NCBI RefSeq assembly: GCF_000421265.1
Contig: NZ_ATWN01000006.1
Coordinates: 1-64,000, forward strand
Length of the DNA: 64,000 nt
Source: Thalassospira lucentensis MCCC 1A00383 = DSM 14000
Lineage (GTDB): Bacteria > Pseudomonadota > Alphaproteobacteria > Rhodospirillales > Thalassospiraceae
Direction: 5' to 3'
A program made the position numbers and the translations under genes. The first letter of the stretch is position 1; the number at the start of each line of letters is the position of its first letter. The notes below the pieces were generated by a model, which had not been told where the DNA came from, did no database searches, and saw only the letters and a program-made list of their open reading frames with translations. This document shows positions 54,554 through 62,667 of this stretch, piece after piece.

Positions 54554-55153
54554 TTAACGCAGCGGAAAGGCCGTATTGATCCGACCGTCTTTGAGCAACC
54601 CCATCGCGATCAAAAACCGCGATTTTGGGGCCGCCCCGACACAGAACTTCACATCTTCCCCGATCAATCCGCCGCCCTCCGGCCGATTGGCCCCGCATTG
54701 CCACCAGCCGGGCGACCCCGCCGGACAGGCTTGGCGATGTTCAAACGCATACAGGATAGATGCCGTCACCTGTTCCATGCTGCACGCATCGGGAAACAGG
54801 CTGGAAAACTTTTGTGGATCATCCCCATTCCGATTGCGCAAACGCACGGTCCCGGCATAAATCCCGTTGGCATTGGGGCTTTGCGTCACCTCAACCCCGG
54901 CCACCGTGGCTGGATTGATCGCATTTGGCCGGGCATGAAACCCGGTTGCCGATCCGTTTGACCGGATTTCACCGCAAAACACATGATCAAGGTTGATCGG
55001 CGGCGTACTTTTGCTCCATGCCGGGGCTGCCGGGCAGGCCACCTGTGCGCGCGCCGGCAGGATCAGCACAAACACCCCGACAATGATGATAGCGGCGAGC
55101 CCCGAAATACCACCACCAATGCCCAACAGCCCCAAATTCCGGCGACTTGTCAT
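54554..55153 (-). CDS. Exported EndoU-type ribonuclease
   Basis: This 199-aa protein starts MTSRRN, followed by a hydrophobic segment (about residues 8-33) ending LPARAQ, a likely Sec cleavage site. The rest carries the EndoU pattern: His57 in NLDHVFCGE, His73 in SATGFHARP, and Lys115 in the segment DPQKFSSLFPDACSMEQVT, with Thr130 and Tyr135 placed as in the family. These are the two His and one Lys of the catalytic centre. EndoU enzymes cut RNA at uridylates and are best known as bacterial contact-dependent toxin domains. Here it stands alone. It lies 15 nt after an ATPase gene. Confidence 0.8.
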   Translation of the reverse strand: MTSRRNLGLLGIGGGISGLAAIIIVGVFVLILPARAQVACPAAPAWSKSTPPINLDHVFCGEIRSNGSATGFHARPNAINPATVAGVEVTQSPNANGIYAGTVRLRNRNGDDPQKFSSLFPDACSMEQVTASILYAFEHRQACPAGSPGWWQCGANRPEGGGLIGEDVKFCVGAAPKSRFLIAMGLLKDGRINTAFPLR

Positions 55154-55168
55154 GTCTCACACCCGTCC

Positions 55169-56545
55169 TTAAAGCTGCGAAAACTCAAGCCCGATACGAA
55201 GGGCCAGCACACTGGCCGGCTCAAACCGCATCGGCACACCGCCAATTTTCCCACCGTGCCATTGCGCCTTGGTCAAAACAAACGCACCCAGCGGCAAGGC
55301 ATGACTGCCCCGGAAATTAACCAATGCACGGATTTCCTTGGGCTTGCGGATCGCTTCATCACGCCACAGACAGTGATAGGCAAAAAGCGGCGTGCCCGAC
55401 CGCCGATCCAAGAACACAAATGGCACCTCATAATGCCCCCAACGCGCGTAATAGAGGCTTTCCATCCCGACACTCGATGTCAAAAACTGCGTCTGGATCG
55501 CGGTTTCCGCCAACCGCGTGATTGTCGCACTGTCGGACGTCCGCGCGCCAATAAGCCCGGTGCGCAAACCCGGATGGATCAGATGGACCTTAAACGCCAC
55601 CGCACGCTGGAACGGCTTGGCATCCTGATCAACCCGTTCAAGACGGCGCACCAACCACGCACTTTCAAGATATTCCAGATAACGGCGCAGCGTGTTTTTG
55701 GCGATATCAAGCTCACGCGCCAGCGTCTCGATCGAAAATTCCGAGCCGGTGTTATAGGCCAGAAGCGCAAACAACCGGTGCAAATCCGACGGGCTTGAAA
55801 TCCCGTGCAACCCCGGCAAATCGGAATGAAGCGACCGATGAATGGCGCGCGCTTCGCCGTTGCGGTCATGAAAACCGCCTTCATTGATATAGGCCTCGAA
55901 CATCTCGTTCAGCTCAACCAAGCCACCGGGCACATCGGACGTATAGCGTCCGACATTTGGCGTTTCGGGCAAAACGTCAGTTGGCGAAACGCCATTCTGT
56001 TCAAGATATTCGGCAAAACTAAACGGGGGTAAAAACAGGCTCTGAATATGTCCGGCACTGTCCGCACTTGGGGCCAGCGCACTGACCGCCACCACACGCA
56101 ACAGCGGATCCGCCACCAGCAATTGCGCCAAACGGTCTTCCCAGTCGCGTTGATAAGACACCTCATCGACGAAAATCCACAATGGATGATCGGCCGAAAT
56201 ACCGCGCATCGACCGCAGCAATTTGGGCAAACGCGGCAGATCAATTTCCAAAAACAGCGGATGTTCAAGCGAGATATAGCAAACATGACGGCGCGGCGTG
56301 TCGGCATTCAGCAAGCTTGCAATCGCCTGGCGCATCATCACGGTTTTACCCACCCCGCGCGGCCCGGTCAGAACAACCGCCTTTTGCCCGTCATGCTTTT
56401 CAATTGCCGCCCAGAACCGCTTGAAAAAGGCGCGCTGCGGCAAATCATGGACCAGATCGTCCGTCACCCCGTCCCACCACGGGTTATCTTGCATCAAACG
56501 GTGCAGAAAGTCCTGCTCACCGGGATGTTCGATCATGGTCGCCAT
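55169..56545 (-). CDS. AAA ATPase with DUF4143-like C-terminal domain
   Basis: This 458-aa protein has Walker A GPRGVGKT at about 61-68, Walker B in LWIFVDEVSYQRDWED, and the AAA_14 pattern LRVVAVSALAP. A winged-helix DUF4143-like domain follows from about residue 255 (LFALLAYNTGSEFSIETLARELDIAKNTLRRYLEYLESAWLVRRLE) and a C-terminal nuclease-like region with LVNFRGSHALPLGAFVLTK. Such ATPases occur in many bacteria, role unsettled. The likely start is ATG 56545 after GTAGG. It is probably cotranscribed with the EndoU gene. Confidence 0.85.
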   Translation of the reverse strand: MATMIEHPGEQDFLHRLMQDNPWWDGVTDDLVHDLPQRAFFKRFWAAIEKHDGQKAVVLTGPRGVGKTVMMRQAIASLLNADTPRRHVCYISLEHPLFLEIDLPRLPKLLRSMRGISADHPLWIFVDEVSYQRDWEDRLAQLLVADPLLRVVAVSALAPSADSAGHIQSLFLPPFSFAEYLEQNGVSPTDVLPETPNVGRYTSDVPGGLVELNEMFEAYINEGGFHDRNGEARAIHRSLHSDLPGLHGISSPSDLHRLFALLAYNTGSEFSIETLARELDIAKNTLRRYLEYLESAWLVRRLERVDQDAKPFQRAVAFKVHLIHPGLRTGLIGARTSDSATITRLAETAIQTQFLTSSVGMESLYYARWGHYEVPFVFLDRRSGTPLFAYHCLWRDEAIRKPKEIRALVNFRGSHALPLGAFVLTKAQWHGGKIGGVPMRFEPASVLALRIGLEFSQL

Positions 56546-56671
56546 TGTCACCTACCCCAAATATTCCGCCGCCCATCGCGCGTCTTTGGCGATAATGCCG
56601 GGGAAAACCTTTAAATTAGGTATAGTGATAAACGCTATTTGGCAATTATTTCGTAATTCCCTGCAAACAAA

Positions 56672-57713: not shown

Positions 57714-58388
57714 TTATTTGTCTTTCTTGACGTTCTTCACGCGCGATTTAAGCTCCTTGAGATCATCTTCAATCCCAATTTCGCCCTCAAGGTCTTCAAA
57801 CTGTTCTTCAAGGCTCTGCCCGCGACCAAGGTCCCAGGAATCCGCACCCGCTTCAAGTTCGTCAATCCGGCGCTCCATCTGCTCATAGCGCAGAAGTGCG
57901 TCATCAATCTGACCCGAATGGATCTTTTCACGCATTTTGACACGCTTTTCAGCCGTCTGCATACGGATTTCCACCGCGCGCTGCTTGCCCTTGGCTTCAT
58001 TAAGCTTGTTCTGCAACTTGTTCAGATCCTCGTCGAACTTGCCAAGAGTCTCTTCAATCACTTCAAGCTCGCGCTCAAGCACAAGGCTCTGATCGGCCAA
58101 CCGGCGGCGCGCCATCAGTGCGCCCTTGGCCAGATCATCACGGCCCTTGGACACGGCAAATTCCGCCTTGGTGTCCCACTCGACCTGACCGTCATGCAGC
58201 TTTTTAAGCTTACGCTCGACTTCTTTCTTGTCGGCAATCGCCTTGACCGCACTGGAGCGGACCTCAACCAGAGTGTCTTCCATTTCCTGGATCATCAACC
58301 GCACCATTTTTTCCGGATCTTCGGCACGATCCAGAAGCGAGTTGATGTTGGCATTTACGATATCGGACAAACGCGAAAACACGCCCAT
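57714..58388 (-). CDS. pspA: Phage-shock protein A
   Basis: This 224-aa coiled-coil ESCRT-III-like protein starts MGVFSRLSDIVNANINSLLDRAEDPEKMVRLMIQEMEDTLVEVRSSAVKAIADKKE. The DPEKM segment and the long coiled coil (residues 25-185) are diagnostic. It binds PspF and acts on stressed membranes. The start has AAGGAGATC upstream. It is divergent from pspF, with a sigma-54-like promoter between. Confidence 0.97.
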   Translation of the reverse strand: MGVFSRLSDIVNANINSLLDRAEDPEKMVRLMIQEMEDTLVEVRSSAVKAIADKKEVERKLKKLHDGQVEWDTKAEFAVSKGRDDLAKGALMARRRLADQSLVLERELEVIEETLGKFDEDLNKLQNKLNEAKGKQRAVEIRMQTAEKRVKMREKIHSGQIDDALLRYEQMERRIDELEAGADSWDLGRGQSLEEQFEDLEGEIGIEDDLKELKSRVKNVKKDK

Positions 58389-58438
58389 TGTCAGATCTCC
58401 TTCAAAATACGGGGACGCAAAAATTCTGACATCACTAT

Positions 58439-58454
58439 TTCAAATGCCGTGCCA
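58439..58454 (-). promoter_or_regulatory. Sigma-54-like promoter of pspA
   Basis: On the minus strand TGGCACG-GCAT-TTGAA matches TGGCACG-N4-TTGCW with A for C in the -12 doublet. The invariant -24 GG is present. The -12 element lies about 50 bp from the pspA ATG. PspF, a sigma-54 activator, is encoded divergently. Confidence 0.65.
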
Positions 58455-58557
58455 GTTTCATTAATTGTTATATTTCAACATCTTATGTAATCATCAGACT
58501 ATTTAATTAACTTTTATCGCGACATTAATTGCGATTTTCGATATCGTTTTTCGCGAA

Positions 58558-59562
58558 ATGGATAGCTTGCAACCGATATTGGGCGAAGACCCCATTTTTC
58601 TGGCCGCGCTTGAGCATGTCTCACGTCTGGCACCAATTGAACGCCCGTGCCTGGTGATTGGTGAACGCGGATCGGGTAAGGAGCTGATTGCTGCGCGCCT
58701 GCATTACCTGTCCAAACGTTGGGGCGGGCCACTGGTTAAGGTCAATTGCGCAGCCCTTTCTGAAACCCTGCTTGATACCGAGCTTTTCGGCCACGAAGCC
58801 GGGGCCTTTACCGGCGCGGCCCGCCGCCATATTGGCCGGTTTGAACGCGCGCACGGCGGCACCATCATTCTCGATGAAATCGCCACCGCCAGCCCCGTGG
58901 TGCAGGAAAAACTTCTGCGTGTTGTCGAATATGGTGAAATTGAACGGGTTGGCGGCTCCGAGGTGATCGAAATCGACACCCGCGTCATTGGTGTGACAAA
59001 TGAAAACCTGCGTGAACTAGCCAAAACCGGCAAGTTCCGCGCTGATTTACTCGACCGCCTCGCCTTTGACGTCGTTGCCGTGCCGCCGCTGCGCCAAAGG
59101 TCTGATGATATCCTGCCCCTTGCCGAACAATTCGCGCTGGAAATGACCAAACGCCTGTCACGGCAAGTTTTCGCAGGCTTCACCCCGACGGCGGCCCGCC
59201 AACTTCTCAGCCATTCCTGGCCCGGCAATGTCCGCGAGCTGCGCAATGCGGTTGAACGCAGCCTTTATCTGTCTGAAGACGATGAAGCCCCGCTTGGTCA
59301 TATCGTGCTCGACCCGTTCGAAGGCATCTGGACCGAAACCGACCATGCCGGACCACCGGCAGCAACAAGCGCCCCCGACGCCCCAACTCCAAGCAGCACA
59401 ACAGACTTCAAATCCCAGGTCGCCGAGTTTGAAATCAACCTGCTCAAACAGGCCCTTCGGGATTACGGCAACAACCAGACCGAAGCTGCCAAGGCGCTTG
59501 ATCTGAATTATCATCAGTTTCGCCGGTTGCTCGACAAGCACAGCCTGTTACCGGGGAAATAA
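58558..59562 (+). CDS. pspF: Phage-shock transcription activator PspF
   Basis: This 334-aa bacterial enhancer-binding protein lacks an N-terminal sensor domain, as usual for PspF. The AAA+ domain has Walker A GERGSGKE (35-42), GAFTGA loop (82-87) that contacts sigma-54, GTIILDEIATASPVVQEKLLRVVEYGE and arginine finger region. The C-terminal Fis-type helix-turn-helix is NQTEAAKALDLNYHQFRRLL. It activates the divergent pspABC promoter when not bound by PspA. Confidence 0.95.
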   Translation: MDSLQPILGEDPIFLAALEHVSRLAPIERPCLVIGERGSGKELIAARLHYLSKRWGGPLVKVNCAALSETLLDTELFGHEAGAFTGAARRHIGRFERAHGGTIILDEIATASPVVQEKLLRVVEYGEIERVGGSEVIEIDTRVIGVTNENLRELAKTGKFRADLLDRLAFDVVAVPPLRQRSDDILPLAEQFALEMTKRLSRQVFAGFTPTAARQLLSHSWPGNVRELRNAVERSLYLSEDDEAPLGHIVLDPFEGIWTETDHAGPPAATSAPDAPTPSSTTDFKSQVAEFEINLLKQALRDYGNNQTEAAKALDLNYHQFRRLLDKHSLLPGK

Positions 59563-59564
59563 GC

Positions 59565-60020
59565 ATGTATCAACCCCGGACTCCGAACTACGACAAATCC
59601 GATCCGATCAAACGTTGGCAGCTGCCCGACAGGGTCTTTTTTGCATGCGGCGCTTGTCACATTCTCGCCCATGCCTTTCTTGAACGCTATGCAAACACGG
59701 CAATGCAGCCGTTCTGGTTCAAGCCATTTGATGGCTTCACCGGAAACCACATCGTTGTCATCTGGGGTGATTGGGCATTTGACTACCACGGCTACAGCAA
59801 ACGCACCGTCCTGATCGATCATTATTTCAAACGCGCCCGGCAACGCTGGCCGGGCTGGGATGCAGAATTGCAGTCACTGCCCCGCGACGTGCTGGTCTCT
59901 GAAAACAAATCAAAGGAAATCAGCGGCCTTTGGCTGCGCGAACCCGACCAGTTTCTTCACAACGCCCTGCCCCGCGCCGAACGCTATCTTGATCGATTTG
60001 GCCCGCCCCCAGACGCTTAA
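59565..60020 (+). CDS. Uncharacterised Cys/His protein coupled to pspF
   Basis: This 151-aa soluble protein begins MYQPRTPNYDKSDPIKRWQLPD. Its ATG is two bases after the pspF stop, with GGGGAA in the end of pspF. Residues 25-45 read VFFACGACHILAHAFLERY and 60-78 read GNHIVVIWGDWAFDYHGYSKR. The Cys-helix then His strand layout recalls papain-like or NlpC/P60 hydrolases. This is inference. A heme c role for CGACH is unlikely because no signal peptide is present. It probably works with, or is modulated by, the phage-shock response. Confidence 0.7.
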   Translation: MYQPRTPNYDKSDPIKRWQLPDRVFFACGACHILAHAFLERYANTAMQPFWFKPFDGFTGNHIVVIWGDWAFDYHGYSKRTVLIDHYFKRARQRWPGWDAELQSLPRDVLVSENKSKEISGLWLREPDQFLHNALPRAERYLDRFGPPPDA

Positions 60021-60040
60021 TCGACCAATGCCAACACGCT

Positions 60041-60664
60041 CTACACCCCAATCAAACGCGACAAGGTCAAAAGCGCAAAAAACAGCAATCCCCCAGCGCA
60101 GGTCAGATTAAGCACCCGCCAAATAACCGGCGACACATAATGCCGCGTCCAGCCGATGCCTGCGGCACAGACAAAACACCACAAAAACGACGACGCCATA
60201 AACCCGGTAATGAAGACAAAAAAGGCCAACCCATCCGGGTCTGCCGCCCCAAGTGCCGAGATTGTCCCGCCCAAGGCCGCCCAATAGGGGATATTCATCG
60301 GATTAGACAGTGAAAGCCCTGCCCCGGCGGCAAAGGCAGACTTTCGACTTTGCACACCCGACGACATCAAACAGGGCATCGGGCGAATAGCATCGCGCAG
60401 GCTTTGCCATGCCATCCATCCCAGCAACGCCGCCCCTAGAACGGCCATCGGCTGTGCAACCAAAGGCAGCGTAAAAATCGCCGCCGCCCCCAAAAGCCCC
60501 AGCACAGCCCAAATCAGATCGCCAATCAACGAGCCGACCTGCACCGCAAAGGCCTGCGCAAACCCGCCGACCATGCCACGCCGAAGACTTTCGGTAAAAA
60601 TCGCCCCGGGCGCTGCGTTAAACAAAAACCCCAGCGCAAAGGCCGATACAAACAATTCGATCAT
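60041..60664 (-). CDS. LysE-family amino-acid exporter
   Basis: This 207-aa protein has six membrane segments. It opens MIELFVSAFALGFLFNAAPGAIFTESLRRGMVGG, which carries the conserved PGA/P motif, and has GLSLSNPMNIPYWAALGG in the middle. Exporters of this type remove amino acids or related metabolites. The substrate is unknown. It is convergent with the 151-aa gene, 20 nt apart. It is a single-gene unit. Confidence 0.9.
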   Translation of the reverse strand: MIELFVSAFALGFLFNAAPGAIFTESLRRGMVGGFAQAFAVQVGSLIGDLIWAVLGLLGAAAIFTLPLVAQPMAVLGAALLGWMAWQSLRDAIRPMPCLMSSGVQSRKSAFAAGAGLSLSNPMNIPYWAALGGTISALGAADPDGLAFFVFITGFMASSFLWCFVCAAGIGWTRHYVSPVIWRVLNLTCAGGLLFFALLTLSRLIGV

Positions 60665-60735
60665 CCATGCCCCGCCAACAAAATGCCCTGTACCTTATGC
60701 ACATGCATCTGCTTAGCGATTGGATGTTCTTGCTG

Positions 60736-61869
60736 TCAGTCGGCAAGCGACCGTGCAATGACCATCCGCTGAATGTCAGATGTGCCTTCGTAAATCTGGC
60801 ACACCCGCACATCGCGATAGATGCGCTCCACCGGGAAATCTTTAAGGTAGCCATAGCCGCCGTGAATTTGAATGGCGGCGGAACAAACTTCTTCGGCGAT
60901 TTCGGATGCAAACATTTTGGCCATGCAGGCCTCGGTCAGGCACGGTTTATGGTCATCGCGCAGTTCGGCGGCGCGGTGCACCAGCAAACGGGCGGCATCG
61001 ATTTTGGTCGCCATATCGGCCAAGCGAAAGGCTACGGCCTGATGCTCCATGATTTTTTTGCCAAAGGTTTCGCGTTCATTGGCGTAATCGCGCGCGGCCT
61101 CAAATGCTGCGCGGGCCATGCCAACCGATTGCGCGGCAATGCCGATGCGGCCACCTTCAAGGTTTGCAAGGGCGATTTTATAGCCCTGCCCTTCATCGCC
61201 CAGCATGTTTTCCGCAGGAACCCGGCATTCAACAAAGGTGATCTGGCAGGTGTCCGAGGCATTTTGCCCCAGCTTTTCCTCGACCCGCGACACCACGTAA
61301 CCCGGCGTATCGGTCGGCACAATAAAGGCGGAAATCCCGCGCTTTCCTGCGTCCGGATCCGTGACGGCAAAGACGATGGCAATATCGCCCTCACTGCCCG
61401 ATGTGATGAATTGCTTGGACCCGTTGATCACCCAGTGATCGCCATCGCGCACCGCACGGGTTCTAAGGGCACTTGCGTCTGATCCGGCCTGTGGCTCGGT
61501 CAGGCAAAACGCACCGATCTTTTCGCCCTGCGCCATCGGCACCAGGAATTTCTGCTTTTGATCTTCGGTGCCAAATTTCAGGATCGGCATACAGCCGACC
61601 GAGTTATGCACCGACATAATGGTCGATGTTGCCCCGTCGCCTGCGGCAATTTCTTCGAGGGCCAAGGCATAGGCGACATGATCCATGCCCGCCCCACCAT
61701 AACTATCTGGGACCAACATACCCAGAAAGCCAAGCTCGCCCAGACCGGCAATCGCCTCGGCCGGGAAGGTATGGTGGGCATCCCACTTGGCGGCATTGGG
61801 TTTGAGTTCATTTTCGGCGAACTCGCGCGCGGTGTCGCGCACCATGATCTGATGATCTTCCAACCGCAT
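60736..61869 (-). CDS. Acyl-CoA dehydrogenase
   Basis: This 377-aa FAD flavoprotein starts [36 protein letters not shown]. Family stretches are [49 protein letters not shown] and the late [40 protein letters not shown]; the Glu in YEGTSD is the catalytic base. Similar to short/branched-chain or isobutyryl-CoA dehydrogenases of amino acid catabolism. The start uses the ATG at 61869. It lies downstream of the beta carbonic anhydrase and thiolase genes. Confidence 0.93.
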
Positions 61870-62561: not shown

Positions 62562-62667
62562 CGCGCGAACTCCCCTGTTTTGATCAATCACTCTGCCGAC
62601 AAAATAGGGGGAATTCGCACAAGTTGGTAGCCCCAAACGCAACTTTTTAGAACGGATTTAATCTGCG

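What the first reader, a model, noticed from the sequence alone, without database searches (positions are those of the whole stretch)
59565..60020. Unknown Cys/His protein translationally coupled to pspF
The ATG is two bases after the pspF stop. The protein has CGACH at 28-32, then GNH at 60-62 and DYHGY at 73-77, a layout like Cys-His hydrolases. PspF is normally a single gene or followed by unrelated ones, so a conserved link would add an enzyme to the phage-shock system.
Basis: partly seen in the sequence, partly recalled or inferred. Interest (0 to 1): 0.52.

Follow-up and report, generated by a model that had tools for sequence, protein, structure and literature searches.

The report
Stray cysteine enzyme beside stress regulator
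A small, unnamed bacterial enzyme gene sits right behind the regulator of a membrane-stress system, but it looks like an independent, mobile accessory gene that landed in a variable spot rather than a part of that system.

Summary
A 151-residue ORF starts 2 bases after the pspF stop, with CGACH 28-32, GNH 60-62 and DYHGY 73-77, and it is a real gene under purifying selection. Pfam, NCBIfam, PHROGs and PADLOC do not name it. A confident model (pLDDT 94) puts C31 at a helix start and H62 and D73 on the next strands. The best solved look-alikes are mostly papain/transglutaminase-like cysteine enzymes (SseI domain Z 5.5, human NTAQ1 Z 5.2). C31, H62, D73 and H75 are near-invariant. So the Cys-His enzyme reading is supported, most likely with H62 rather than H75 as base.

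The phage-shock link is not supported. It exists only in this genus (Thalassospira-like): 14 of 29 genomes have the intact gene directly behind pspF, 7 have porin-like genes in between, 4 have broken copies and 4 none. Outside the genus, 0 of 62 loci have pspA or a true pspF nearby. Of 15 other genomes with the family, 0 have a PspF or PspA above cut-off. The pspF-acyl-CoA dehydrogenase interval is a variable cargo slot (41-4482 bp) that elsewhere holds toxin-antitoxin and phage-defence genes.

The parts
59565..60020 (+). gene for a 151-aa predicted papain/transglutaminase-like cysteine enzyme (C31, H62, D73; H75 also near-invariant)
59655..59657 (+). codon of predicted nucleophile C31
   Evidence: position computed from the ORF start; C in 80 of 80 rows with a residue there
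59748..59750 (+). codon of predicted general base H62
   Evidence: position computed from the ORF start; H in 78 of 80 rows
59781..59783 (+). codon of predicted third triad residue D73
   Evidence: position computed from the ORF start; D in 80 of 80 rows
58558..59562 (+). pspF, left border of the variable slot
   Evidence: TIGR02974 above cut-off; present in 29 of 29 genus genomes
60041..60664 (-). LysE-type exporter gene, further cargo of the slot
   Evidence: PF01810 1.8e-32; in the slot of 3 of 29 genus genomes, this one included
60736..61869 (-). acyl-CoA dehydrogenase-like gene (name recalled, no family scan), right border of the variable slot
   Evidence: syntenic in the genus loci

Best explanation
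The ORF encodes a small protein without an obvious signal peptide (by eye), of a so far unnamed family with a papain/transglutaminase-like fold. C31 at the start of a helix is the likely nucleophile, H62 on the next strand the base, and D73 on the following strand orients the histidine; it would attack an amide bond of a peptide or protein (a protease or deamidase type of reaction). Shown: the gene, its conservation, the invariant residues, the predicted fold, the distribution. Inferred: catalysis, the triad geometry, the class of reaction; the substrate is unknown. It is an accessory, probably horizontally moving, stand-alone gene. In this genus its ancestor settled in the variable slot between pspF and an acyl-CoA dehydrogenase gene, where it is probably read along with pspF because of position. 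It is not a working part of the phage-shock response.
For: Near-invariant C31, H62, D73 (80/80, 78/80, 80/80 of rows with a residue there). Model pLDDT 94.2, pTM 0.90, helix 31-42, strands 63-67, 70-73, 76-79. Top structural rows SseI catalytic domain (Z 5.5), NTAQ1 (Z 5.2; model residue 28 pairs with residue 25 at the start of the match, so C31 would fall on catalytic Cys28 if there is no gap), AvrPphB (3.8), CPR-C4 (3.5), vasohibins (3.3); catalytic triads of NTAQ1 and SseI from passages of PMC4214742. Purifying selection. pspA or true pspF at 0 of 62 outside loci; 0 of 15 outside carriers with PspF or PspA over cut-off. Slot variable 41-4482 bp against pspA-pspF 165-179 and acad-CA 58-97. 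Patchy: 11 of 385 class genomes and 10 of 398 phylum genomes, own genus included.
Against: No Foldseek PDB match at E <= 0.001 and Z under 8, which can mean only a common arrangement (note). No activity shown. Deepest genus branches already have the gene next to pspF, and 14 of 29 genomes keep a 1-15 bp gap, so a genus-specific regulatory use cannot be excluded. The single-origin branch of the genus copies has only 83/87 support.
Confidence: 0.74

Rival explanations
1. It is a phage-shock enzyme: co-translated with PspF, it processes or deamidates a Psp protein or envelope substrate.
For: Gap of 1-15 bp in 14 of 29 genus genomes with the intact gene; adjacency goes back to the deepest genus branches.
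Against: 0 of 62 outside loci next to pspA or a true pspF; 0 of 15 outside carriers with PspF or PspA over cut-off; broken in 4 and absent in 4 of 29 genus genomes that all keep pspF; porin-like genes in between in 8. PMC11237479 passages name no such partner, but that survey left PspF out of its detailed analysis.
Confidence: 0.08
2. It is a single-gene phage-defence or toxin-type enzyme, one of the defence genes that use the pspF-acad slot; on infection it would cleave or deamidate a host or phage protein.
For: In 3 of the 4 genus genomes without the ORF the slot holds HipAB, AbiJ_NTD4 or a UG5-nitrilase reverse transcriptase. Patchy spread, mobile-element neighbours on plasmids, broken copies. 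31 PADLOC models hit among 140 near neighbours against 7 among 137 farther ones.
Against: No PADLOC or Pfam hit of its own; the near-neighbour excess seems driven by 4 Uma2-like proteins and probably one helicase hit by many models (inference); the slot also holds metabolic and porin genes; no recurrent partner such as an antitoxin; no match in phage records or viral contigs.
Confidence: 0.13
3. It has the fold but not the chemistry: a papain-like protein used for binding or structure.
For: No activity data; weak fold scores.
Against: C31, H62 and D73 almost never vary although the rest diverges to about 40% identity; the exceptions at H62 (L069, L093) are in a divergent misbinned copy and a truncated one.
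Confidence: 0.05

Closest known systems
Human NTAQ1, protein N-terminal glutamine amidohydrolase (4w79)
   Same: Cys-His-Asp order, similar core (Z 5.2 over 94 residues); triad Cys28, His81, Asp97 (PMC4214742 passages)
   Different: 6% identity; no PF09764 hit; longer protein; spacings 53 and 16 against 31 and 11 here
SseI catalytic domain (4g2b)
   Same: best structural row (Z 5.5 over 91 residues, 12% identity); Cys178, His216, Asp231
   Different: part of an injected effector; here a whole stand-alone protein in bacteria without such context in the loci read
CPR-C4 and vasohibins
   Same: transglutaminase-like cysteine enzymes among the structural rows (Z 2.8-3.5)
   Different: Cys-His-Leu(carbonyl) triad (PMC9108980 passages); here an invariant Asp follows the His
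Pfam PF24591 Phage_YunG-like
   Same: weak hits in 3 of 52 members, best E 0.014; Cys-His-Asp layout of YunG is recalled
   Different: below any usual cut-off; match positions not seen (one search did not include the hitting members)

Membership tests
Phage-shock (Psp) system component | gene linked to psp genes across lineages | tested here: not met
   0 of 62 loci outside the genus; one, L062, has another sigma-54 activator (39.7%) 3.8 kb away
Phage-shock (Psp) system component | occurs in genomes that have PspF/PspA | tested here: not met
   0 of 15 non-genus carriers have PspF or PspA over the curated cut-off; 2 have weak PspA-like hits
Papain/transglutaminase-like cysteine enzymes | conserved Cys at a helix start, then His and Asp on following strands | tested here: met
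Papain/transglutaminase-like cysteine enzymes | the shared fold | tested here: inconclusive
   the ten best rows are of this kind by title or by recalled knowledge, but Z is at most 5.5; no Foldseek PDB E under 0.001
Papain/transglutaminase-like cysteine enzymes | cysteine-dependent amide chemistry | not testable with these tools
   needs purified protein
NTAQ1 / Nt_Gln_amidase (PF09764) | match to the family profile | tested here: not met
   not among hits at E <= 1 for the window protein or among the 12 families listed for 52 members
Vasohibin/CPR-C4 | Cys-His-Leu(carbonyl) triad | tested here: inconclusive
   D73 invariant, but no residue-level superposition was available
Known defence gene families (PADLOC) | profile match | tested here: not met
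   0 families at E <= 0.1

The most novel reading that the evidence does not exclude
A new family of stand-alone papain-like enzymes that moves between alphaproteobacteria and serves as a one-gene defence or growth-arrest enzyme, and a previously undescribed defence hotspot behind pspF in Thalassospira-like bacteria.
Probability: 0.13. Interest if true: 0.6.

Novelty: new member of a known kind. Interest (0 to 1): 0.3.

Why it matters
It shows how a gene that looks translationally coupled to a stress regulator can be a passenger of a variable slot. What is left is a conserved, unannotated family with an enzyme-like active site, and a compact insertion slot next to pspF that in some relatives holds phage-defence and toxin-antitoxin genes.

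Tried and rejected
Psp partnership: rejected. Spurious ORF: rejected. Phage gene: no match in phage records or viral contigs (29 stretches matched a pattern, none confirmed). Conserved partner gene: none; the clusters shared by several loci were mostly from close relatives or at scattered offsets. PDB by sequence: none; one row at E 0.56, a 14-3-3 protein, taken as chance. A first structure without alignment was useless (pLDDT 41). YunG-like lead: one search rescanned 10 of 52 members, none of which hit PF24591, so the lead stays open. Families PF24591 and PF24585: 0 matches in the own genome; PF09764: one match below cut-off, elsewhere in the genome. BFVD look-alikes are mostly uncharacterised phage proteins, best E 1.9e-3. 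The VIA list is a second look at Foldseek's own matches, so absent families are not excluded. Promoter and terminator scan of 58300-60800: counts near the shuffles, nothing used. Literature: 'Thalassospira' with 'PspF' gave 0 papers; 'Thalassospira', 'defense', 'hotspot' gave 12, of which 6 were listed and read as listing only, none on this; 'YunG', 'papain' gave only unrelated listings.

Rows left out: the tree used 74 of 80 loci plus the window; L069, L084, L086, L091, L093, L096 were dropped as broken, partial or misbinned. The neighbour test used 49 of 62 loci after thinning near-duplicates, 140 of 191 near genes and 137 of 170 far genes (140 were drawn; L088:1-1129, L097:1-487 and L108:1-439 were dropped as cut at the edge, and two ends were shortened by one base). 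The tool keeps at most 80 of 96 confirmed loci, and the first looks scored at most 9 candidates a genome.

Full report
The observation. ORF 59565-60020 (+) encodes 151 residues and starts two bases after the pspF stop. CGACH, GNH and DYHGY are at the stated residues. pspF passes the curated TIGR02974 cut-off, pspA and pspB pass theirs (TIGR02977, TIGR02976), and pspC is divergent (NCBIfam hit below cut-off). The window protein has no hit in Pfam or NCBIfam at E up to 1, none in PHROGs and none in PADLOC.

A real gene. In the genus, 25 of 29 genomes hold all or part of it. Six close pairs give dN/dS 0.06-0.23.

What the protein looks like. An alignment of 52 members gave a model with pLDDT 94.2 and pTM 0.90. 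C31 starts helix 31-42; H62 precedes strand 63-67; D73 ends strand 70-73. Among 81 aligned rows, C31 is C in 80 of 80 rows with a residue there, H62 is H in 78 of 80 (exceptions L069, L093), D73 is D in 80 of 80 and H75 is H in 79 of 80; H32 varies twice. Foldseek found no PDB match at E <= 0.001; its leading rows are vasohibins and AvrPphB. VIA-align put the SseI catalytic domain (Z 5.5), human NTAQ1 (Z 5.2) and then AvrPphB, a PaTox protease-like domain, CPR-C4 and vasohibins on top; Z under 8 is weak. NTAQ1's and SseI's Cys-His-Asp triads are from passages of PMC4214742, and CPR-C4's Cys-His-Leu triad from passages of PMC9108980. That AvrPphB is a papain-like protease is recalled.

The pspF link inside the genus. 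All 29 genomes have pspF. In 14 the intact ORF follows within 1-15 bp; in 7 the intact ORF lies behind one or two outer-membrane-barrel-like genes (about 1-2.2 kb); 4 copies are broken (G011, G016, G017, G020; G016 behind a barrel-like gene); 4 genomes have none (G003, G013, G014, G018). One barrel gene was tested (PF13505, 3.4e-18); the others are alike by eye. The frameshift in G017 could be a sequencing error. The 17 genus rows form one group in the tree with support 83/87, so one arrival followed by vertical descent is the simplest history.

The slot. Between pspF and the acyl-CoA dehydrogenase-like gene the distance runs from 41 to 4482 bp (29 genomes), while pspA-pspF stays at 165-179 (18 rows) and acad-CA at 58-97 (27 rows); CA stands for the carbonic-anhydrase-like gene (name recalled). 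Two other intervals in that table also vary: AAA14-pspC 235-2234 and CA-thiolase 97-1857. The slot's cargo includes LysE, PrpF, an ABC-type ATPase, HipAB, AbiJ_NTD4 (PADLOC PDC-S32) and a UG5-nitrilase reverse transcriptase. Of the 4 genomes without the ORF, 3 have such defence or toxin-antitoxin genes there and one is empty.

Outside the genus. Genome contigs gave 96 confirmed loci, 80 kept: 18 hold pspA (17 of the genus and one misbinned contig, L069) and 62 do not. None of the 62 has pspA or a pspF-grade gene within the fetched flanks of up to 8 kb, some cut shorter by the contig ends. In samples of whole genomes the family is patchy: 26 of 150 relatives (25 of them the genus), 11 of 385 of the class (2 of the genus), 10 of 398 of the phylum (3 of the genus). 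The 15 non-genus carriers have no PspF and no PspA over cut-off, with two genus genomes (G000, G007) as positive control; several of these copies are themselves broken or partial (G183, G702, and stops in G446 and G624). 51 plasmid records carry it, 45 of them Sinorhizobium; of five plasmid neighbourhoods read, four have a transposase, recombinase or integrase gene within about 5 kb, and the fifth (Salipiger) has CcdAB about 4 kb away. No shared partner gene appeared (Pfam of 140 near genes).

Defence rival. PADLOC at E <= 1e-10 hit 31 models among 140 near genes (25 listed; the commonest are Uma2-like, 4 members) and 7 models among 137 far genes (the Uma2 name from Pfam). Many near models are helicases that one protein could trigger, so this is a hint, not an enrichment test.

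Verdict. A predicted papain-like cysteine enzyme, new as a family, sitting by location next to pspF. The link to the phage-shock response is not supported; a defence role is open but weak.

Noticed in passing
54554-55153 (-): Protein with a bacterial EndoU nuclease domain (PF14436, 2e-17), possibly a toxin.
   Followed up: no
55169-56551 (-): AAA_14/DUF4143 ATPase that also matches the candidate defence model PDC-S01 (3.5e-33), just beyond pspC.
   Followed up: no
L162:1178-4198: UG5-nitrilase reverse transcriptase (PADLOC DRT models, 1.9e-265) alone in the pspF-acad slot of G014.
   Followed up: partly
L035:6815-7006 and L032:8480-9019: Partial copies of the pspF 3' end and of the acyl-CoA dehydrogenase gene inside the slot, a possible trace of cargo exchange by recombination in the flanks.
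   Followed up: no
L069: Contig filed as a Spirochaetales MAG carries the Thalassospira psp locus: probably misbinned.
   Followed up: no
G000:C1:664370-665026: A second, distant PspA-like protein in the own genome (67 bits, below cut-off).
   Followed up: no
interval CA-thiolase, 62643-62667 in the window: Across the genus this interval is either about 0.1 kb or about 1.6-1.9 kb, so a second presence/absence insertion lies nearby.
   Followed up: no
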